Assembly (NCBI RefSeq): GCF_030123365.1
Contig: NZ_CP126107.1
Coordinates: 3,616,001-3,680,000 of the forward strand
Direction: 5' to 3'
Length of the DNA stretch: 64,000 nt
From: Neobacillus sp. SuZ13
Lineage (GTDB): Bacteria > Bacillota > Bacilli > Bacillales > Cytobacillaceae
In this document: in pieces, positions 5,559 through 64,000 of the stretch
Position numbering within the stretch: position 1 is the first letter of the stretch
Layout of the letters: each line of letters starts with the position of its first letter
Program-made: the position numbers and the translations under genes
The notes under the pieces: model-generated
The model's database searches: none
Seen by the model: only the letters and a program-made list of their open reading frames with translations
Told to the model about the DNA's origin: nothing

Positions 5559-6569
5559 TTACATGGGTCTTTCATTGTTGTTTTCTGTGAATTGTTTGAT
5601 TCTTGGACTTGCTTGTTTCTCGGACACAAGGATACCATCAGGGCTTGCGGCCACCACTACATTTGATAGGCCTAAAATCGTAATTGGAAGATTCAATTCA
5701 TTTATTAAATGAGTGTTTTTTGAGTCTTGACTAATGAATCCCTTTCCTAAAACGTTTGTATCGAGCTGTTCCGTTAATGAGTTCCAAGTGCCTAAATCCT
5801 TCCATTTGCCGGTATAAGGAACAACGATCAAACTCCCTGTCTTCTCAACTACTTTATAATCAAAGCTGGTCTTTGGTAATTTCTCGAATATGTCAATCAT
5901 TTTATGGTACTCTAACGGCCATTTTTCATTCGAGATGACAGAAATCATATGCTTTAGCTTAAAAGCAAACACTCCACAGTTCCACAAGGCATTTTGTTCG
6001 ATCAATTCTTCCGCCAGTTTCAGATTGGGCTTTTCTATAAAACGATCTACATGCAGATAGTTTACTTCTGCCCTCCCTTGATTTTTCGGTATGATATATC
6101 CGAATCTTTCATCCGGTTGTGTCGGGCGTACACCCAGTAAGGCTAAGTACGTGCCAGTTTCATTGATTATTGACTCAAGTTCTTTAATGCGGTGGAAGAA
6201 CTCCTCTTCCACGAATTGATCCACGGTATCACACAGGATTGCTTCTTCTAAATCGACCTTTACTTTGGAATACAAATAACTGCAGGCTAAAGCAATGGCA
6301 GGAAATGTATCGCGGCGGCTGGGTTCGGTAATTAAGGGAATATTGGGGCCTAATTGATTTTGAATAATATCCACTTGTGCTCTGCTGGCTGCAATAAAAC
6401 ACAAATCCGCTAATTTAACAGACTTTAATTGTGTCCACATCCTTTGGGCCATAGATTGCAGCTCATTTTTAGGGTTGCGAAGTATTTTCAGGAACTGTTT
6501 GGACCTTGAATCATTTGATAACGGCCATAATCTTTTTCCCGATCCCCCTGATAATACAATAATCTTCAT
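5559..6569 (-). CDS. manC: Mannose-1-phosphate guanylyltransferase (ManC N-terminal domain, prematurely ended)
   Basis: Makes GDP-mannose from mannose-1-phosphate and GTP for surface glycans. 336 residues with the nucleotidyltransferase signature VLSGGSGKRLWPLS, KQFLKI, FGYIIP, FIEKPN and GKWKDLGTWNSL. This is a complete catalytic domain; it ends at TAA 5559 and the isomerase cupin follows in the same frame. The fragment may still transfer GMP. It is convergent in function with, but divergent in transcription from, the glycosyltransferase operon at 6891. No classic ribosome site is obvious upstream of the ATG beyond a weak AGGATG. Confidence 0.9.
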   Translation of the reverse strand: MKIIVLSGGSGKRLWPLSNDSRSKQFLKILRNPKNELQSMAQRMWTQLKSVKLADLCFIAASRAQVDIIQNQLGPNIPLITEPSRRDTFPAIALACSYLYSKVKVDLEEAILCDTVDQFVEEEFFHRIKELESIINETGTYLALLGVRPTQPDERFGYIIPKNQGRAEVNYLHVDRFIEKPNLKLAEELIEQNALWNCGVFAFKLKHMISVISNEKWPLEYHKMIDIFEKLPKTSFDYKVVEKTGSLIVVPYTGKWKDLGTWNSLTEQLDTNVLGKGFISQDSKNTHLINELNLPITILGLSNVVVAASPDGILVSEKQASPRIKQFTENNNERPM

Positions 6570-6890
6570 CTATTAAGAATCATCCTTTACATTAGTAGTT
6601 TTACAAAGATGTTCAAGATAATTACTCGATGTGTATGTCCATCCCTTAAATATTCATATGCAGATCATAAAGATAACGCATGGATGGGTATCTATTTCTA
6701 TTAAAAAACTTCTGTATACCCAAAGCACAATTTTATTTTATAGGCTTTTAGATTATATCCTCTCTACAGGTTTTGTCATACTATATCCAAGCATGAACCT
6801 AACACTGCGGGCACTTCCGTGAGAAAACAAACATTGTCCTCTTCCAGTAAAGGTTCGTCGATCAATTAATTCTTAGGAGGAATTCTTTAC
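6570..6890. other. Divergent promoter region between manC and the glycan operon
   Basis: 321 bp with no convincing gene. A CATACTATA at 6777-6785 resembles -10 elements of sporulation sigma factors, with no good -35. The ribosome site TAGGAGGA lies at the right end, before 6891. A 63-codon frame at 6631 has no ribosome site and is dismissed. Confidence 0.4.
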
Positions 6891-8018
6891 ATGGGATTTA
6901 ATTCACTTGAAAATATAAGGGTGTTGGTCATAGATGATTGTATTCCGGCACCTGAATTAGGATGGGGTTATCCTAGAAGCAATCTTGTCTTGGATTGCCT
7001 TGTCGACATGGGTTGTGAGGTATCTCTATTACCCTTGCAAAATCCCAAGAAAATACAACCACATACTGATCTTTTACAACAGAAGGGAATAAAAATTAAA
7101 ACTCCTGACAGGAGCAACTTAAAGCAATTTTTTCTCAAAAAAAAGGATCGTTATGACGTGATTTGGATCAGCCGTCCCCTCAATATGAGTCAAACCATTG
7201 ATATGATAAGGAAAGTCAATCCTTCACAAAAAGTGATCTATGATTCAGAAACCTTTTCTCCGGCCCGGGAAATCCTTCGGAGGAAATTGTATGGAAAAAA
7301 CCTAAGCGAGGATAAGATAAAGTCCATCATTCAATGGGAACTGGATCTAATGAGCAAAGCCGATATGGTTGTGGCTGTATCCGATCGGGAAAGAAAAACG
7401 ATCAAAAATTTTGGGATTAAGCCCGTAAAAACGCTCAGTTTTTCGATGGATACCAATCCAACTTCAAGTCCCTTTAAAGAGCGAGAGGATATTCTTTTTG
7501 TTGGGGCGTTTCTTGATTCACCATCACCAAATGAAGATTCAATCCTCTATTTTGTAAACGAGATTTATCCTAAAGTTTATGAAGCACTTGGCGCAAAGTT
7601 ATGGATTGTGGGGACTGGTTCAGATAATATTCATTCGATCAAGAAATTGGCTTCCGACAATATCGTAGTTGGCGGGAAAATGGATGACCTGTGGGATGTA
7701 TACAACCGCTCTAAAGTATTTGTTGTTCCAACAAGATACGCATCGGGAATCCCCCTGAAATTGATTGGAAGTCTCGCCCATGGCCTGCCTAGCGTGGTGA
7801 CTCCCTTAATAGCCGATCAGCTTGAACTAAATGAAAATACTTTGTTGATTGGTGCAGATCCGGAGGATTTTGCCCAAAAAGTTATTCAATGTTATACCGA
7901 TGAGAAAACGTGGATGGGACTAAGAGAAAATGGCTTGCAATATATCAAAAATGAGTTTCAACTGCAAAAGTTTAAACAAGATTTAATCAAAATCATGCAA
8001 GGGATTAGAGAAACCTAG
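6891..8018 (+). CDS. Glycosyltransferase, GT4-like
   Basis: 375 residues, GT-B type. The N-terminal half starts with IRVLVIDDCIPAPELGWGYP. The C-terminal half carries the donor-site region: ILFVGAF, KLWIVGTGSDN, NIVVGGKMDDL, VFVVPTRYASGIPLKLIGS and GLPSVVTP, as in family 4 transferases. No membrane segments, so it acts in the cytoplasm or is peripheral. First gene of a seven-gene rightward operon that makes and uses a CDP-linked deoxysugar. The start is supported by TAGGAGGAATT 7 nt upstream. Donor and acceptor sugars cannot be read from sequence. Confidence 0.85.
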   Translation: MGFNSLENIRVLVIDDCIPAPELGWGYPRSNLVLDCLVDMGCEVSLLPLQNPKKIQPHTDLLQQKGIKIKTPDRSNLKQFFLKKKDRYDVIWISRPLNMSQTIDMIRKVNPSQKVIYDSETFSPAREILRRKLYGKNLSEDKIKSIIQWELDLMSKADMVVAVSDRERKTIKNFGIKPVKTLSFSMDTNPTSSPFKEREDILFVGAFLDSPSPNEDSILYFVNEIYPKVYEALGAKLWIVGTGSDNIHSIKKLASDNIVVGGKMDDLWDVYNRSKVFVVPTRYASGIPLKLIGSLAHGLPSVVTPLIADQLELNENTLLIGADPEDFAQKVIQCYTDEKTWMGLRENGLQYIKNEFQLQKFKQDLIKIMQGIRET

Positions 8019-8053
8019 AATAGCGTCTCTAATGCCCAGCTAGGAGGTTTTTT

Positions 8054-8839
8054 ATGAAGGTTGTCATATTGGCTGGGGGCTTCGGCACAAGGATAAGCGA
8101 AGAAACCATACTAAAACCAAAGCCAATGATTGAAATTGGTGATAAACCAATATTATGGCATATCATGAACCTATATTCATCCTATGGTTTTCATGATTTT
8201 ATCATCTGTTTGGGATATAAAGGGGATCAAATCAAGAAATACTTCTCCGATTATTTTTTGTCCCATGCGGATGTTACGTTTCATCTTCAAGAACAAAAAA
8301 TATCGATTCATCAGCAAAACGTAGAGCCTTGGAATGTTACGCTTGTAGATACCGGCCTCCATACGATGACAGGCGGCAGGATCAAGAGGATACAGAAATA
8401 TATCGGAAATAATCCATTTATGGTGACATACGGGGACGGTCTCTCTGATATTAATATCCAGCAATTAGTGGACACTCATCGCACCCATGGAAAAATAGCA
8501 ACGGTAACCGCCGTTCAGCCAGTTGGCCGTTTTGGCAATTTAAATATCTCGGAGGATGGTTCGGTCTCGGAATTTGTGGAAAAACCGAAAGGTGACGGGC
8601 AATGGGTTAATGGAGGTTTTTTCGTGATGCAGCCAGAATTTTTTGATTATTTAGCCGGTGACGATGTGGTATTGGAGAAAGAACCGCTTGAAACCCTATC
8701 CGAGAATGGGCAGCTTGTGGCGTACAAGCATTCTGGCTTTTGGCAACCCATGGATACTCTTCGGGATAAGAATCATTTATCTGAATTATGGAATTCCAAT
8801 CAAGCGCCTTGGAAAAAGGAGATCGATCAAAGTGAATAA
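8054..8839 (+). CDS. rfbF: Glucose-1-phosphate cytidylyltransferase
   Basis: Converts glucose-1-phosphate and CTP to CDP-glucose, the entry to CDP-3,6-dideoxy- and 6-deoxyhexoses. 261 residues, typical length. Signature VVILAGGFGTRISEETILK, then KPMIEIGDKPILWHIM, GYKGDQIKKYF, MVTYGDGLSD, VEKPKG, and WVNGGFFVMQPEFFD. Ribosome site TAGGAGG before the ATG. Its last 8 bp overlap the next gene's GTG start, so the two are translationally coupled. Confidence 0.93.
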   Translation: MKVVILAGGFGTRISEETILKPKPMIEIGDKPILWHIMNLYSSYGFHDFIICLGYKGDQIKKYFSDYFLSHADVTFHLQEQKISIHQQNVEPWNVTLVDTGLHTMTGGRIKRIQKYIGNNPFMVTYGDGLSDINIQQLVDTHRTHGKIATVTAVQPVGRFGNLNISEDGSVSEFVEKPKGDGQWVNGGFFVMQPEFFDYLAGDDVVLEKEPLETLSENGQLVAYKHSGFWQPMDTLRDKNHLSELWNSNQAPWKKEIDQSE

Positions 8840-9914
8840 AAGTTTCTGGTGCAATAAAAAAGTGCTTATCACAGGACATACGGGCTTCAAAGGCTCTTGG
8901 TTATGCTTATGGTTGCATCAGCTGGGTGCAAAAGTTACCGGTTTCGCTTTAAATCCGCCAACGGAACCTAATTTGTATCATTTATGCTCGATTGAAAACT
9001 TAGTTCATTCCGTGCATGGCGATATTCGCAATTTTGATCAATTGTATGAAACTATTTTACAAACTGAACCCGATATTATCTTTCATATGGCTGCTCAGCC
9101 GCTTGTGGGGCATTCCTATGAAGATCCTAAGGAAACCTATGAAATCAACGTGATGGGAACGATCTATCTTCTGGAGGCAGTCAGAAAGGCCGTCAACAAC
9201 GGAAAAAGGATCAAAGCACTGGTTAACGTAACGACGGACAAATGTTACGAGAATAAGGAATGGCATTGGGGCTACAGGGAAAATGATCGGCTCGGCGGTT
9301 ACGATCCATATTCCAATAGCAAGGCGTGCAGCGAACTGATTACAGATTCCTACCGAAAGGCTTTTTTCAACCCGAACACTTATCACCAACATGGAGTAGG
9401 TATAGCTACTGCTAGAGCTGGCAATGTAATAGGCGGTGGTGACTGGGCGGCGGGGCGATTGATCCCTGATTGTACACAGGCGCTTTTAAATGGAAAAAAG
9501 ATCGTGATTCGCAATCCAAAGTCTATCCGCCCTTGGCAGCATGTCTTGGAACCGCTCCATGGTTACCTGCTATTGGCTGAAAGACTTTACCTCAAAGGAC
9601 CTGCATATGCGGAATCATGGAATTTTGGTCCGAGGGACGACGATGCGAAACCTGTTGAATGGATCGTGAAGCGAATTTGCGAAAAATGGGGAAATCAAGC
9701 TTATTACGAAGTAGCCAGCAGGAATCATCCCCACGAAGCTCGTTACTTGAAACTGGATTATTCGAAAGCAAAGGAAAAATTAGGATGGCACCCGAAATGG
9801 ACCATTGATCAAGCGATTGAAAAAGTAATGGATTGGGTACGAGCGTACCATGAAAAAAACGACATCAGAGAAGTTTGTTTTAAGCAAATAGAAGAATTCT
9901 CTGAGTTAATATAA
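8832..9914 (+). CDS. rfbG: CDP-glucose 4,6-dehydratase
   Basis: Makes CDP-4-dehydro-6-deoxyglucose. 360 residues, extended SDR fold: cofactor loop ITGHTGFKGSWL near the N-terminus, HMAAQPLV, VNVTTDKCYENKEW, catalytic Y-x3-K in DPYSNSKAC, then GNVIGGGDWA and RPWQHVLEP, which are diagnostic of RfbG. The GTG at 8832 has AAGGAGA upstream and overlaps the end of rfbF. A longer frame opening at 8658 lies inside rfbF and is rejected. No DdhC/RfbH 3-dehydratase follows, so the pathway probably goes to a 6-deoxyhexose rather than a 3,6-dideoxyhexose. Confidence 0.93.
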   Translation: MNKSFWCNKKVLITGHTGFKGSWLCLWLHQLGAKVTGFALNPPTEPNLYHLCSIENLVHSVHGDIRNFDQLYETILQTEPDIIFHMAAQPLVGHSYEDPKETYEINVMGTIYLLEAVRKAVNNGKRIKALVNVTTDKCYENKEWHWGYRENDRLGGYDPYSNSKACSELITDSYRKAFFNPNTYHQHGVGIATARAGNVIGGGDWAAGRLIPDCTQALLNGKKIVIRNPKSIRPWQHVLEPLHGYLLLAERLYLKGPAYAESWNFGPRDDDAKPVEWIVKRICEKWGNQAYYEVASRNHPHEARYLKLDYSKAKEKLGWHPKWTIDQAIEKVMDWVRAYHEKNDIREVCFKQIEEFSELI

Positions 9915-9927
9915 GGGGGGAGACTCC

Positions 9928-10479
9928 ATGCGTATTGAGAAAACATGCATCGAGGGTTGTTATGAAATCATTCCGGCATACACTAAAGATGAGCGAGGTA
10001 GTTTCATCAAAACAGTGATTCCCTCTTGTTTTAAAGCACATCAACTTGAATTCAACTTAAAAGAACAATATTACTCGATTTCTTCCAAAAGAGTATTGAG
10101 AGGATTGCATTTTCAGCTACCGCCCAAAGAACACACAAAATTAGTTTGCTGTGTATCGGGGACGGTTATGGACGTCGTAGTTGATGTGAGGAAAGGGTCC
10201 CCTACTTACGGCCAATATAGTACCTTCATACTGGAATCCGATAAAGCCAATATGGTCTACATTCCACACGGTTTAGCCCATGGTTTTTATGTATTAAGTG
10301 AACAAGCAATCGTTCTTTGCCATATGACCACCGTTTTCTCCCCTGCTCACGACAGCGGGATTCGCTGGAATTCTCTTTCCATCCCGTGGCCAGATGACAA
10401 TCCCATTCTCTCGAAAAAGGATCGTGAACTGCCAGCACTGTCAGATTTCGTAAGCCCTTTTACCTCCCGCCAACCTTAA
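9928..10479 (+). CDS. RmlC-like sugar 3,5-epimerase family protein (copy 1)
   Basis: 183-residue cupin of the dTDP-4-dehydrorhamnose 3,5-epimerase family. The catalytic histidine sits in VLRGLHFQLPP and the partner aspartate in LSKKDRELP. HGLAHGFYV marks the barrel. The tyrosine of the usual TDYYSP motif is not there; the place reads TTVFSPAHDSG. It is about half identical to the next gene, so the two arose by tandem duplication. Because the upstream enzymes make a CDP-4-keto sugar, the likely substrate is CDP-linked rather than dTDP-linked (inference). Ribosome site GGGGGGAG before the ATG. Confidence 0.85.
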   Translation: MRIEKTCIEGCYEIIPAYTKDERGSFIKTVIPSCFKAHQLEFNLKEQYYSISSKRVLRGLHFQLPPKEHTKLVCCVSGTVMDVVVDVRKGSPTYGQYSTFILESDKANMVYIPHGLAHGFYVLSEQAIVLCHMTTVFSPAHDSGIRWNSLSIPWPDDNPILSKKDRELPALSDFVSPFTSRQP

Positions 10480-10510
10480 TAAATATATCTTATGAAGATG
10501 AGGTGTTTTG

Positions 10511-11074
10511 ATGCAGGTACAGAAAACAAGCATTCCTGGCTGTTATCAGTTAATTCCATTGCATTTCACGGACAACCGTGGCAGTTTCATCAAGACTTTC
10601 CATCAGCAGGAATTTGCACAAAACGGTTTAGAAACGAACTTCGTTGAAAGTTACTATTCAATATCGAACCAGCGTGTTTTACGGGGCTTACATTTTCAAG
10701 TTCCGCCATGGGACAATATCAAATTAATTTATTGCCTCCAGGGTAAAGTGATGGATGTTGTGGTGGATCTTAGAACCGGATCCCCTACCTACGGTAAATA
10801 TGAAATATTTCAGTTGGACTCTGAAAAACCCGGGATTATATACATTCCGTCAGGAGTAGCTCATGGGTTTTATGTAGAAACCGGCACGGCAATTATGGTT
10901 TATATGTCAACACGTGTGCACTCTCCTCAACATGATGCCGGAATACATTGGAAATCCCTTACGATTCCATGGTCAGATCCAAACCCTATAATTTCAAAAA
11001 GAGATCAGCAGTTACCGTTATTTGACCATATCTCAAGTCCGTTTCGTTTTAGCGACACAATCGATCATAATTGA
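10511..11074 (+). CDS. RmlC-like sugar 3,5-epimerase family protein (copy 2)
   Basis: 187 residues, paralogue of the preceding gene with conserved VLRGLHFQVPP, VMDVVVDLRTGSPTYG, SGVAHGFYV and ISKRDQQLP. As in copy 1 the TDYYSP tyrosine is missing (STRVHSPQHDAG). The ATG at 10511 is used, with GAGGTG 7 nt upstream; the TTG directly before it is not needed. Two copies in a row suggest a heteromer or separate C3 and C5 epimerisations. The exact step is unknown. Confidence 0.85.
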   Translation: MQVQKTSIPGCYQLIPLHFTDNRGSFIKTFHQQEFAQNGLETNFVESYYSISNQRVLRGLHFQVPPWDNIKLIYCLQGKVMDVVVDLRTGSPTYGKYEIFQLDSEKPGIIYIPSGVAHGFYVETGTAIMVYMSTRVHSPQHDAGIHWKSLTIPWSDPNPIISKRDQQLPLFDHISSPFRFSDTIDHN

Positions 11075-60576: not shown

Positions 60577-61719
60577 TCAGAATTTGGTCCCATCCTTATA
60601 AAAAATAATTGTTTCTAGCTCGAGTTTAATTTCCTCCTTGAATTCCTTATAAAATCCAACGAAAACATCACGATTTACTTTTAGTATATAAATATATTGA
60701 GCTAGTAAGTATTTATCGGGAACAGTAGTACAGGAACGCATTGCCGCATAGTACATCTTTTTTAGCTTTTTCTGAACTAATTCTTCAGTTATAAGCTCTT
60801 CTTCACCTATAAATTCGCTAATTACTTCACTCATGACCGTTTCATACAGACTGGAATTTATTTTTCCGGACCAACGTTCATTTAAATTGAATAGTTCTTC
60901 AAAATTAGCCACCCTTATATTGTCGGATTCCTTCCCTTTCTTGGTACCAATAATAAATCTTTCATCTAGTTCATTTTGGTCGATTTCTACCGCAATCGAA
61001 TTGATACCTGGACGATGATAAGGAAAAAATATATTAAAAAGTCCACCAACTCCAGGATAATTTTCCAATGGGTCTTTAGCACCTTTGATATTCTCATTAC
61101 AAATTTTACAAAGTGGGATTAAATTATCCGGTGAAATAGAAAGAAAGGGATAAATTGACTTTGTTAAATAGTGGTCCAAATCCGCATAACCATCTTCTTC
61201 TGTAACTTCAATCTGACCCAAGCATGCTGGGCATACCGGATTAAAAGAACCATCACGTTTTTGATTTACCTCGAAATAACCCCTTCTTACATGCCCACGT
61301 CTTAATCGAGGTATTGAAAGTCCTTCCATTCTAAATCCAGTTGAACCACCCAAAATCTTATCGTATAATGCTTCAAAAAATGGTTTTGCCACTTTCTTCA
61401 CGCAATTTGGAAGATCAAGATATTTTAGACGATAATCCGTTTGGTTTAAATGTGAAACAAAATCAATATCTTCTTGGAAAGCTAGATGGAGTGCTATACG
61501 ATATTCTTGCTTTAGTCGGCACATATTTGTAATACCTTCTCTAACTGCTTGGTAATCAATAAACCAATCCACTCCTTGACCGCGAAAGATTTTTTTAAAA
61601 TCACTTACATCAAATGTTGGGGTCTTTGAATCAGCTATATATCCAAGGACTTTTTCAATAAACTGGTTTACCAAGCGTAGGTCATTTTCTAGATTAGTCT
61701 TTTTCGTCAGGAGTAATAT
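60577..61719 (-). CDS. HNH endonuclease of an ATPase-nuclease defence pair (PtuB-like)
   Basis: About 380 residues. The HNH core has zinc knuckle CPACLG, YADLDHYLTKSIYPFLSISP (the DH of HNH), NLIPLCKICNENIKG. The N-terminal half is unassigned. The gene overlaps the end of the ATPase gene. A strong AAGGAGG at 61734-61728 is followed 8 nt later by ATA in frame, where ATG is expected (then LLLTKKTNLEN), so the start may be non-standard or mutated. The frame is open back to TTG 61806, which has no site. ATPase plus HNH matches the Septu (PtuA-PtuB) arrangement. Confidence 0.78.
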   Translation of the reverse strand: MLLLTKKTNLENDLRLVNQFIEKVLGYIADSKTPTFDVSDFKKIFRGQGVDWFIDYQAVREGITNMCRLKQEYRIALHLAFQEDIDFVSHLNQTDYRLKYLDLPNCVKKVAKPFFEALYDKILGGSTGFRMEGLSIPRLRRGHVRRGYFEVNQKRDGSFNPVCPACLGQIEVTEEDGYADLDHYLTKSIYPFLSISPDNLIPLCKICNENIKGAKDPLENYPGVGGLFNIFFPYHRPGINSIAVEIDQNELDERFIIGTKKGKESDNIRVANFEELFNLNERWSGKINSSLYETVMSEVISEFIGEEELITEELVQKKLKKMYYAAMRSCTTVPDKYLLAQYIYILKVNRDVFVGFYKEFKEEIKLELETIIFYKDGTKF

Positions 61720-63412
61720 TTTTATTTCCTCCTTCCTTATTTTCTTCAGATTGGTGCAATTTCTCCATTTGAGTGTGGATTCGGAAACGATAATAACCCG
61801 GCCCAACTTTATTCAAAAGCTCAAGTAACTCTTCTTCTTTATCAGAGTTGAACTTTTCCTTTAATAATCTCATAGAATATTGACCAATAGGTGAATTGAC
61901 GCCGAATATACGTTTCGATATATCTGCACGATTAGCAGCAAAAGTCGAGATTGTCAATGGTGCAACATGAATGGCCCCTATTTTAGACCTTTCTAACAAA
62001 TAAAGTTGATCAGGATCAGCATCCGTTAGTAACAGTGTGGAATGGGTAGCGATTATGAACTCATGCTTCGTTTTTCCATCATCATTCTTGGACATTTGAT
62101 GAAGTAGTTCCACAAATTGTTCGTTCCATGATTCATTTAAATGGACATCAGGTTCATCAAATAAAAAAAGTACATCTCCATTATCATAACTACGGGAAAG
62201 TAACACAAGGCCTAGGCGCCCCAACCAAAGATACTCTCCGTCACTCAAGGAGATTTCATGAAAGAGTTGATCTGTTCGTTTATTTTTAAACATCAGGTGT
62301 GCATCAACAAGAAAGCCTTCACGTTTAGCAACTAATAGTATGGTTAGAAGATCAAATGGGTTAATATCAGGCCCTAGCCCGTAACAGCGATATTCGTCAT
62401 TTTCATGTCCTAGAATAGGAAAAAAAGCTATTCTCTCTTTCTTTGTACTTTTAGTTAAGACATGGCTCGCTATTTCATTCTTATCTCGAGAAATATTCCA
62501 AGCATGGCAAATTTGTTGATTTTCGGGTAATTCTTTTTGTGTACTCATCCACTTTATTAACAATTGAAACCTTGGCGGTACTTGCTCCGTTTCAATTAAC
62601 TCTTTTAACTTTTCTTCATCAACCACGAAGGTAATCCCAATTGGTATTACCCCACCGATCATATCTAGTAGCTTATTTCGAAGACTAATATATCTTTTAT
62701 CGAGTTGAGGTTCTTTTTCAGAGTACAAAGAAGGTATAGCTGCACTTAAACAAATTAGAACAAATTTCGATGTTTCACCATTTATATATAAATACGAGGC
62801 ATCATCGTAAAGTCGTTTCAAATTAATCAGGGAATGTTCAATCTCGAACATTTGCAAATCATAGTCTTGATCTTTTTGATCCCTGTATCGAGCATCATAA
62901 ATATCACTTTTTATGGATTCCTCCGGTGAATGAAACAAAACATCTTCAAATATGTTAGTAGGACCTGAGGCATATCCAATGATTCGTCGAGGATGATACT
63001 CTTTCCATTCACTGAAGGGACGTTTGCGCAGATCAAGGCGTGTTCTTATCCCTTTTGAATCCACCACATGAACTTGTAATCGTGACTCCAAATCTATGTC
63101 CTGGCTATTACCAGTAAAATCCTGCTGAATCGATCGTATATTATCAACATTAGGCTCTACTTCAATTGTAATTTGTTCTCGATCATACTCTATTGAGTAC
63201 ACCAGTTCAAAATGAAATCCTGGAATTTCATCTTGCAAAATACGAGTAAAAATCAAACCAATCGCTTCAAGGAGTGACGTTTTACCGACACCATTGCGAC
63301 CAATTAAAAATCGAAAAGGATCTTTCCCCACACTCCTTTCAATATTTTTGAAGTTAATCATAAATTCACTCAATTGCTTATATTTTTTTATGTAAATCTT
63401 TTGTAATCTCAT
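61694..63412 (-). CDS. ABC-type/AAA_15-21 ATPase of a defence operon (PtuA/OLD-like)
   Basis: 572 residues from ATG 63412 (CGGAGGG 9 nt upstream). MRLQKIYIKKYKQLSEFMIN, Walker A LIGRNGVGKTSLLEAIGL, a long variable middle, signature-like ISLSDGEYLWLGRLGLVLL, Walker B VLFLFDEPDVHLNESW and H-loop EFIIATHSTLLL. SMC/OLD-type dimerising ATPase without a fused TOPRIM domain. Cotranscribed with the HNH gene (overlap) and 4 bp after the upstream gene. Probably senses phage infection or DNA ends and controls the nuclease. Also close to the NCBI class restriction system-associated AAA ATPase. Confidence 0.85.
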   Translation of the reverse strand: MRLQKIYIKKYKQLSEFMINFKNIERSVGKDPFRFLIGRNGVGKTSLLEAIGLIFTRILQDEIPGFHFELVYSIEYDREQITIEVEPNVDNIRSIQQDFTGNSQDIDLESRLQVHVVDSKGIRTRLDLRKRPFSEWKEYHPRRIIGYASGPTNIFEDVLFHSPEESIKSDIYDARYRDQKDQDYDLQMFEIEHSLINLKRLYDDASYLYINGETSKFVLICLSAAIPSLYSEKEPQLDKRYISLRNKLLDMIGGVIPIGITFVVDEEKLKELIETEQVPPRFQLLIKWMSTQKELPENQQICHAWNISRDKNEIASHVLTKSTKKERIAFFPILGHENDEYRCYGLGPDINPFDLLTILLVAKREGFLVDAHLMFKNKRTDQLFHEISLSDGEYLWLGRLGLVLLSRSYDNGDVLFLFDEPDVHLNESWNEQFVELLHQMSKNDDGKTKHEFIIATHSTLLLTDADPDQLYLLERSKIGAIHVAPLTISTFAANRADISKRIFGVNSPIGQYSMRLLKEKFNSDKEEELLELLNKVGPGYYRFRIHTQMEKLHQSEENKEGGNKNITPDEKD

Positions 63413-63416
63413 ATAA

Positions 63417-64000
63417 TTAATCCCTCCGCAAGTTTGTCGCCCTCTTCCACAAAACAATTTTTAGAGGGTCCTGGAAATTTATTATACGATTGCTTTCATT
63501 GGAGGATTGTTTTGGATATAGCATTTCACTAGAAGAAACAGATTCAATTAAGCCGAGGGCATTCAATAATTCCGTAATTTGCTTAGCTTCTTGCACACCC
63601 AATTTCGTACTCTTATTCAAATTGTTATTCACAAGTTTTGCAGCCTCGTGGATGGCTAGTGGCTCTTTTGCATCCATAAATATATTGAATAATGCCTTTT
63701 GTTTTTCTGATAAATGTTCCCCTATTACATTCTTTACAGTCTTTAAATCTGCTTCAGCAGTGGTTGTTACAACTTCTTTGAAATCAGTCTCTACTCGGAA
63801 ATTTTCAGACTGTTCCTTAAAGTGCATTCTATAAAGTTCATCCATCTCGTCCTTTATTCCCCACTCAAGCTCCCTTATTTCATTTATTAAACGATTAGGA
63901 TCAAAATATTTCCTATTGACCAAACGCTTTCTATAGGCGGACGCAGCCAATTGAAATTGCTTCTTTTCAATTTCCGAGTAGGAGGTAATCCAAACATGAT
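63417..64000 (-). CDS. Unrecognised protein, C-terminal part (5' end outside window)
   Basis: The frame stays open to the right edge (HVWITSYSEIEKKQFQLAAS continues before the apparent first ATG/TTG), so this is the last 194 residues of a larger protein. Helical charged segment INEIRELEWGIKDEMDEL, then a winged-helix-like region ALFNIFMDAKEPLAIHEAAK and EAKQITELLNALGLIESVSS. First visible gene of the operon with the ATPase 4 bp downstream. Possibly the DNA-binding or sensor subunit of the system. No family can be named from this fragment. Confidence 0.7.
   Translation of the reverse strand, partial: HVWITSYSEIEKKQFQLAASAYRKRLVNRKYFDPNRLINEIRELEWGIKDEMDELYRMHFKEQSENFRVETDFKEVVTTTAEADLKTVKNVIGEHLSEKQKALFNIFMDAKEPLAIHEAAKLVNNNLNKSTKLGVQEAKQITELLNALGLIESVSSSEMLYPKQSSNESNRIINFQDPLKIVLWKRATNLRRD

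What the first reader, a model, noticed from the sequence alone, without database searches (positions are those of the whole stretch)
60577..64000. Three-gene defence operon: unknown protein, OLD/PtuA-like ATPase, HNH nuclease
The sequence shows tight coupling: a 4-bp gap between gene 1 and the ATPase, and an overlap between the ATPase and the HNH gene. ATPase plus HNH nuclease is the Septu (PtuAB) composition, but the ATPase and a 380-residue nuclease are joined to an extra upstream gene whose C-terminus has a winged-helix-like segment. Known Septu loci are mainly two-gene, so this could be an extended or different system. The surroundings (AT-rich spacer, repeats, frameshifted unknown gene) look like an island.
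Basis: partly seen in the sequence, partly recalled or inferred. Interest (0 to 1): 0.72.

Follow-up and report, generated by a model that had tools for sequence, protein, structure and literature searches.

The report
Septu-like nuclease coupled to pseudo-methylase
A bacterium carries a four-gene, probably anti-phage operon in which a DNA-recognition complex of the restriction-enzyme kind, whose methylase seems to have lost its base-binding pocket, is joined to an ATPase and a nuclease of the Septu kind, which suggests that a protective enzyme was turned into a sensor.

Summary
Gene 1 is the last third of a type I HsdM-like methyltransferase, and an hsdS-like gene precedes it: the operon is hsdS - hsdM-like - PtuA-like ATPase - HNH. 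Relatives are distant (about 20-35% identity) and scattered over several phyla. In a tree of 36 ATPases the 24 encoded inside type I gene clusters lie on one side of a branch (94/89). [quoted passage not shown] Unusual here: (1) the HsdM-like protein keeps its SAM motif but has isoleucine at both aromatic pocket positions; motif IV is aromatic in 24 of 24 related-locus HsdMs and 30 of 30 controls that hold it. (2) No HSDR_N gene was found in the genome. (3) Its sister loci carry a still more degenerate methylase-like protein directly before the ATPase, beside an intact HsdM. I propose a non-methylating recognition complex that holds and triggers a Septu-like effector. Nothing about function was tested. 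Verdict: new variant of a known kind.

The parts
60577..61719 (-). HNH endonuclease gene, 380 aa if it starts at the ATA codon at 61719; overlaps the ATPase gene by 26 nt
   Evidence: ORF, start region, PADLOC PDC-M01B 51.3, PDC-M62B 49.2 and PtuB 35.1 bits, weak Pfam HNH 14.1 bits under cut-off
61084..61233 (-). HNH core with CxxC ... DH ... N ... CxxCN ... K
   Evidence: columns invariant in the 8-row alignment of relatives and in the 6-row alignment
61694..63412 (-). PtuA-like / TIGR04435-like ABC-type ATPase gene, 572 aa
   Evidence: AAA_15 60.6 bits, PADLOC PtuA1 135.8 bits, TIGR04435 113.3 bits, cut-off 300
63278..63301 (-). Walker A region of the ATPase (GRNGVGKT)
   Evidence: columns conserved among relatives
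62150..62170 (-). Walker B region of the ATPase (FLFDEP)
   Evidence: columns conserved among relatives
63417..64000 (-). 3' part (last 193 codons) of the HsdM-like gene; the gene runs on to genome C1:3681195 (592 aa) and hsdS-like lies at C1:3681206-3682339, both beyond the window
   Evidence: L002 = C1:3674001-3694000; N6_Mtase 143.8 bits and Methylase_S 44.8 bits
63420..63743 (-). extra C-terminal stretch of the HsdM-like protein, possibly winged-helix, proposed to dock the ATPase
   Evidence: absent from ordinary HsdM by length and alignment; structure prediction failed; similarity to HsdS tails of L004 and L057 not significant

Best explanation
The locus is a type I restriction-derived recognition complex coupled to a Septu-like effector. 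Shown by sequence: hsdS-like, HsdM-like, ATPase and HNH genes tightly packed on one strand. Shown by comparison: the ATPase belongs to a branch whose members are encoded inside type I gene clusters, and the protein directly before the ATPase is an HsdS, an HsdM-like protein or a degenerate HsdM derivative. Inferred: HsdS and the HsdM-like protein still assemble on DNA and may bind SAM, but no longer methylate, because both aromatic residues of the base pocket are isoleucine. The complex acts as a sensor. Through the extra C-terminal stretch it holds the ATPase-HNH pair; when infection changes or disrupts the DNA-bound complex, the ATPase is released or activated and HNH cuts nucleic acid, stopping phage growth directly or by halting the cell. 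HsdS plus pseudo-HsdM would do for this pair what the reverse transcriptase with its DNA does for PtuAB in retrons and what EcoprrI does for PrrC.
For: Operon and families. Linkage: in 24 of 24 type-I-type loci the gene directly before the ATPase is hsdS (20), HsdM-like (2, ours and L006) or the degenerate X (2, L010 and L063); none of 11 stand-alone loci listed has an hsd gene there. These 24 ATPases lie on one side of a branch (94/89; 94% of bootstrap trees; 0 of 500 shuffles as low). Pocket: GFILTP and NPPI in ours; motif IV aromatic in 24 of 24 other HsdMs of these loci that hold it and in 30 of 30 controls that hold it, of 32 examined; first pocket position F or Y in 22 of 23 and 28 of 30. 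SAM motif DPACGTGTLL kept. X of L063 and L010, the loci that group with ours (96/84), has DPPM and DPPL and aligns to the HsdM profile (probability 93.7, E 1.9e-7). No HSDR_N in the genome. Pocket mutants F171A and N276A/F279A of PacII M1 affect methylation (passages of PMC9613975). Precedents, passages only: PtuAB of retron-Eco7 arrests growth (PMC11555353); PrrC is activated when EcoprrI is inhibited (PMC12707154).
Against: No function was tested. The loci were gathered with type-I-linked seeds, so 24 of 36 is not a natural frequency. Our row has a long branch (1.55), so its place is less sure. By BLAST our HsdM is nearer to ordinary HsdMs than to X, and X against ours alone gives only E 0.061. 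The second HsdM of L006, in the same group, keeps NPPF. L008 and L077, without a detected HsdR, keep aromatic pockets, so loss of HsdR and loss of the pocket do not go together. The docking domain rests on a non-significant comparison (probability 1.0%, E 0.055). The HNH start is an ATA codon. Absence of HsdR was tested with one Pfam family genome-wide (it was found in 9 of 14 control genomes) and with three seed models near the locus.
Confidence: 0.45

Rival explanations
1. Conventional restriction-modification with a swapped nuclease: HsdS-HsdM still methylates host sites, and unmethylated phage sites recruit the ATPase-HNH pair, which cuts DNA in place of HsdR.
For: SAM motif intact; HsdS with two matched stretches; no HSDR_N found; other loci of the branch keep NPPF methylases, and L008 has M-S-ATPase-HNH without a detected HsdR.
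Against: Both aromatic pocket positions are isoleucine in ours. In 13 of 24 loci an HsdR is detected as well, so the pair is usually an addition, not a replacement (the seed models come from four of these loci).
Confidence: 0.25
2. Decay: the operon is a degenerating remnant of a type I cluster with its ATPase-HNH pair, no longer functional.
For: ATA start of HNH; pocket substitutions; ATPase absent from the other 60 genus genomes searched; one relative, L015, is visibly broken.
Against: Four long open frames; Walker A, LSDGE, Walker B, HNH core and SAM motif intact; sister loci show methylase degeneration beside intact partner genes.
Confidence: 0.15
3. A stand-alone Septu-like pair that merely lies beside hsd genes in a defence island.
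For: Stand-alone ATPase-HNH relatives exist; other defence-like genes lie nearby.
Against: Tight junctions and one tree branch for the type-I-linked ATPases.
Confidence: 0.1

Closest known systems
Septu (PtuAB), including Septu type II = retron I-A
   Same: PtuA-like ATPase followed by an overlapping HNH gene; in one sister group of 11 loci the partners of 7 of 7 tested match PtuB models nearly full length
   Different: built into a type I cluster; NCBIfam PtuA cut-off not met (48.9 of 500); our HNH matches PtuB only around the core
NCBIfam TIGR04435, restriction system-associated AAA family ATPase
   Same: same branch of the tree and same kind of neighbourhood (M-S-ATPase-HNH)
   Different: 113.3 bits against a cut-off of 300; ours lies in a sister group of 6 rows
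[quoted passage not shown] original not held)
   Same: OLD-type ABC ATPase coupled with an endonuclease in an RM-like setting
   Different: cannot be told: the original description was not seen
Type I restriction-modification
   Same: HsdS and an HsdM-like subunit with the SAM motif
   Different: no HSDR_N found; both pocket aromatics replaced
Non-canonical type I systems with M1 and M2 (PacII; passages of PMC9613975)
   Same: two different M-type proteins occur in sister loci L006, L010, L063
   Different: PacII M2 is an active enzyme with NPPY; X has DPPM or DPPL and ours has NPPI
PARIS (AriAB) and PrrC with EcoprrI
   Same: effectors that respond to phage anti-restriction (passages of PMC12707154); ATPase matches AriA at 63.8 bits
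   Different: partner is HNH, not Toprim or an anticodon nuclease

Membership tests
Septu | PtuA-type ATPase | tested here: inconclusive
   PADLOC PtuA1 135.8 bits (no cut-off given); NCBIfam PtuA 48.9 bits under cut-off 500
Septu | PtuB HNH partner, full length | tested here: not met
   best PtuB model 35.1 bits over residues 192-342 of the 409-aa ORF; no NCBIfam hit
Septu | two-gene operon without hsd genes | tested here: not met
   hsdS-like and HsdM-like genes directly upstream
Septu | anti-phage activity | not testable with these tools
   needs phage challenge
TIGR04435 | score over the curated cut-off of 300 bits | tested here: not met
   113.3 bits
Type I restriction-modification | HsdS with target recognition domains | tested here: met
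   Methylase_S, two stretches, 44.8 bits over cut-off 22
Type I restriction-modification | HsdM with SAM motif | tested here: met
   N6_Mtase 143.8 bits, DPACGTGTLL
Type I restriction-modification | HsdM motif IV with aromatic residue | tested here: not met
   NPPI; 24 of 24 related-locus and 30 of 30 control HsdMs that hold the motif are aromatic
Type I restriction-modification | HsdR | tested here: not met
   no HSDR_N match in the genome (found in 9 of 14 control genomes); no match to three seed models in L002, L060 and window 40001-64000. Other HsdR families were not searched
Type I restriction-modification | DNA methylation | not testable with these tools
   needs a methylome
PARIS (AriAB) | AriB Toprim nuclease partner | tested here: not met
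   partner gene is HNH; no AriB among the families shown for it (best 25 of 40 shown)
Retron I-A (Septu type II) | reverse transcriptase beside ptuAB | tested here: not met
   none of the ten proteins scanned from L002 matches a reverse transcriptase family in Pfam; ORFs under 90 aa and further genes were not scanned

The most novel reading that the evidence does not exclude
HsdS and the pocket-less HsdM form a decoy of a type I methyltransferase. [quoted passage not shown] Sister loci would carry the real enzyme and the decoy subunit side by side.
Probability: 0.12. Interest if true: 0.8.

Novelty: new variant of a known kind. Interest (0 to 1): 0.5.

Why it matters
Septu ATPase-HNH pairs are known alone and with retrons. 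A coherent branch of them built into type I restriction clusters, with a methylase that in one sub-branch appears to have become a non-catalytic subunit, would show how a modification enzyme can turn into an infection sensor. It would also make directly testable, by two gene deletions and a methylome, whether restriction complexes hold toxic effectors in check, as EcoprrI does for PrrC.

Tried and rejected
Rejected: gene 1 as an unrelated gene (HsdM-like). Rejected: MazG-like plus DUF2075 as part of the system. They stand upstream here and in Priestia L008, but of 17 plasmid records with a DUF2075 match I opened six more, and none shows an annotated hsdM-hsdS-ATPase-HNH operon (plasmid annotation is incomplete). 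Rejected: the ending of motif I as a signal; GSLL, GSLM and GTLL endings occur in control HsdMs.

Not shown: homology of the C-terminal stretches of HsdM and HsdS (hhalign probability 1.0%, E 0.055; best of ten comparisons, not significant). HsdS ORF lengths fit the idea: 377, 391, 401 and 418 aa in the four loci where another protein stands between HsdS and the ATPase, 449 to 670 aa in 18 others (ORFs taken from the first start codon, so upper bounds; L007 split, L015 broken and L017 open at a contig end left out).

Failed or empty: structure predictions of HNH (mean pLDDT 44.7) and of the HsdM C-terminus (40.2), so no fold search was run; viral scan with our HsdM; plasmid search with X of L063; plasmid search with the AAA_13-like protein; PDB searches with HNH and HsdS; empty site in the genus, where flanks were found but not joined in any relative that I could read from the lists; promoter-like sites no more than in shuffles (29 against a mean of 28.8) and terminator-like sites 5 against 3.6.

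Rows dropped before the tree: L015 (broken), L022 (weak match), L066 (near copy of L065), L071 (cut by a contig end), and repeats of our own locus. 'Stand-alone' means that I saw no hsd gene in the locus; L070 is cut just after the ATPase. Of the 11 plasmid records that were new, I opened five: two were type-I-linked, three stand-alone. score only the best three candidates of each genome, so misses are possible.
Full report
What is there. The window is C1:3616001-3680000 of a single-contig genome of 6,085,354 bases and ends inside an operon. The next stretch (L002, C1:3674001-3694000) shows on the minus strand an hsdS-like ORF (377 aa, C1:3681206-3682339), an HsdM-like gene (592 aa, C1:3679417-3681195), the ATPase gene (572 aa from the ATG) and the HNH gene (380 aa from an ATA codon). 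Spacings are 10 nt, 4 nt and a 26-nt overlap. Family scans: N6_Mtase 143.8 bits, Methylase_S 44.8 bits, AAA_15 60.6 bits, HNH 14.1 bits under its cut-off; PADLOC PtuA1 135.8 bits, type I methyltransferase 176.1 bits, type I specificity 57.5 bits, PDC-M01B 51.3 bits for HNH; TIGR04435 'restriction system-associated AAA family ATPase' 113.3 bits against a cut-off of 300.

How common. At the cut-offs used the ATPase was found in 1 of 398 genomes drawn from the class and 1 of 61 of the genus, our own both times. A profile found it in 4 of 398 of the phylum: ours, G641 at 267.7 bits, and two relatives at 98.6 and 95.2 bits that turned out to be stand-alone. No phage record matched. Five of 72,556 plasmid records matched and all five lie beside hsdM and hsdS genes, the hsdS of L007 being split.

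The branch. In a tree of 36 ATPases the 24 type-I-linked rows lie on one side of a branch from the 12 stand-alone rows (94/89; 94% of bootstrap trees; 0 of 500 label shuffles as low). Within it are three groups: ours with L004, L006, L010, L057 and L063 (100/98); seven rows (100/100), five of which pass the TIGR04435 cut-off and two of which bear that name in their records; and eleven rows (96/95) whose small partner proteins, in 7 of 7 tested, match PADLOC PtuB models nearly full length. In the 24 loci the gene directly before the ATPase is hsdS in 20, HsdM-like in 2 and X in 2; HsdR is detected by my three seed models, built from four of these loci, in 13; L012 and L017 are cut by contig ends. 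The loci were collected with type-I-linked seeds, so these shares are not natural frequencies.

The methylase. In our HsdM-like protein the SAM motif is DPACGTGTLL, but the two positions that are aromatic in the base pocket of other HsdMs are isoleucine: GFILTP where others mostly have G[EQ][FY]xTP, and NPPI. At motif IV 24 of 24 other HsdMs of these loci that hold the region have NPPF, and 30 of 30 control ORFs that hold the motif, of 32 examined, have NPPY (16), NPPF (13) or DPPF (1). At the first position 22 of 23 and 28 of 30 are F or Y, one of the 28 in a doubtfully aligned fragment; the exceptions are L in L013, whose SAM motif is also degenerate, and H in two controls. X proteins are not in these counts. 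In PacII, M1 subunits have AGEF and NPPF pocket motifs, and the mutants F171A and N276A/F279A affect m6A and m4C formation (passages of PMC9613975); that our positions correspond to F171 and F279 is read from the motifs.

The sister loci. L010 and L063, which group with ours (96/84), have R, M and S genes, M with NPPF, and then a protein X directly before the ATPase. X of L063 has DPPM and a degenerate SAM motif; X of L010 has DPPL and lacks the SAM-domain part. X aligns to the HsdM profile (probability 93.7, E 1.9e-7). Herpetosiphon L006 has a second HsdM there, with NPPF. Ours has no second type I HsdM near by; the genome's only other N6_Mtase match is a 47.5-bit one 1 Mb away. Against equating ours with X: BLAST puts ours nearer to ordinary HsdMs, and X against ours alone gives only E 0.061.

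The coupling stretch. The protein before the ATPase carries an extra C-terminal stretch: in ours, L006, L010 and L063 on the methylase-like protein, in L004 and L057 on HsdS, with a similar LSxxQ ... LGLI pattern in most of them. The profile comparison is not significant (probability 1.0%, E 0.055). HsdS is 377-418 aa in the four loci with an intervening methylase-like protein and 449-670 aa in 18 others. A movable docking domain is my inference.

Mechanism. I favour a non-methylating HsdS-HsdM sensor that holds and triggers a Septu-like effector (0.45) over conventional modification-restriction with HNH as cutter (0.25), decay (0.15) and an independent neighbour (0.1). What HNH cuts is unknown. 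The boldest reading, a decoy for anti-restriction proteins, is given as the novel case (0.12) and is a special form of the favoured one.

Relation to what is in print. [quoted passage not shown] A likely source, Krishnan et al. 2020, appears in a reference list I saw but is not held, so I do not know how much of this operon it describes. Passages of the PADLOC paper PMC8565338 describe Septu type I and type II; those passages name no hsd-linked type. My ten searches, of which I saw the listings, listed no title about a methylase-like sensor with a Septu pair; most subscription papers and all preprints are outside the library.

Noticed in passing
L002:8596-10827 (-), genome C1:3682596-3684827: 743-aa AAA_13-like protein (33.9 bits, under the cut-off) with G+C of only 25.3%, next to the operon; PADLOC PDC-S06 36.3 bits; no plasmid match at 1e-10. 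PrrC-like proteins share the AAA_13 domain (recalled).
   Followed up: partly
L002:12449-14607 (-): MazG-like gene overlapping a DUF2075/SLFN-g3 helicase gene; the same pair stands upstream of the hsd operon in Priestia L008 and occurs elsewhere without it.
   Followed up: partly
L013:5866-7452: HsdM of the Alistipes locus keeps NPPF but has a degenerate SAM motif (DTTFNSG) and L at the first pocket position; no HsdR was detected there. Possibly a second, independent loss of methylase function.
   Followed up: no
L015 (Niabella defluvii), about 6178-10543: A broken copy of the whole cluster: hsdM, hsdS and ATPase each in several fragments with stops inside.
   Followed up: no
L063, L064, L065, L066, L069: Type-I-linked ATPase-HNH clusters on contigs classed as viral, so some may travel on phages or other mobile elements.
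   Followed up: no
L005:3735-4730; L075:2630-4347: Further genes inserted inside the type I clusters: an Abi family gene between hsdR and hsdM (Pseudoalteromonas), and a hypothetical plus a GIY-YIG nuclease gene between hsdM and hsdS (Sphingobium).
   Followed up: no
window 61717-61733: The HNH gene has a good Shine-Dalgarno sequence but its best placed start is a rare ATA codon.
   Followed up: no
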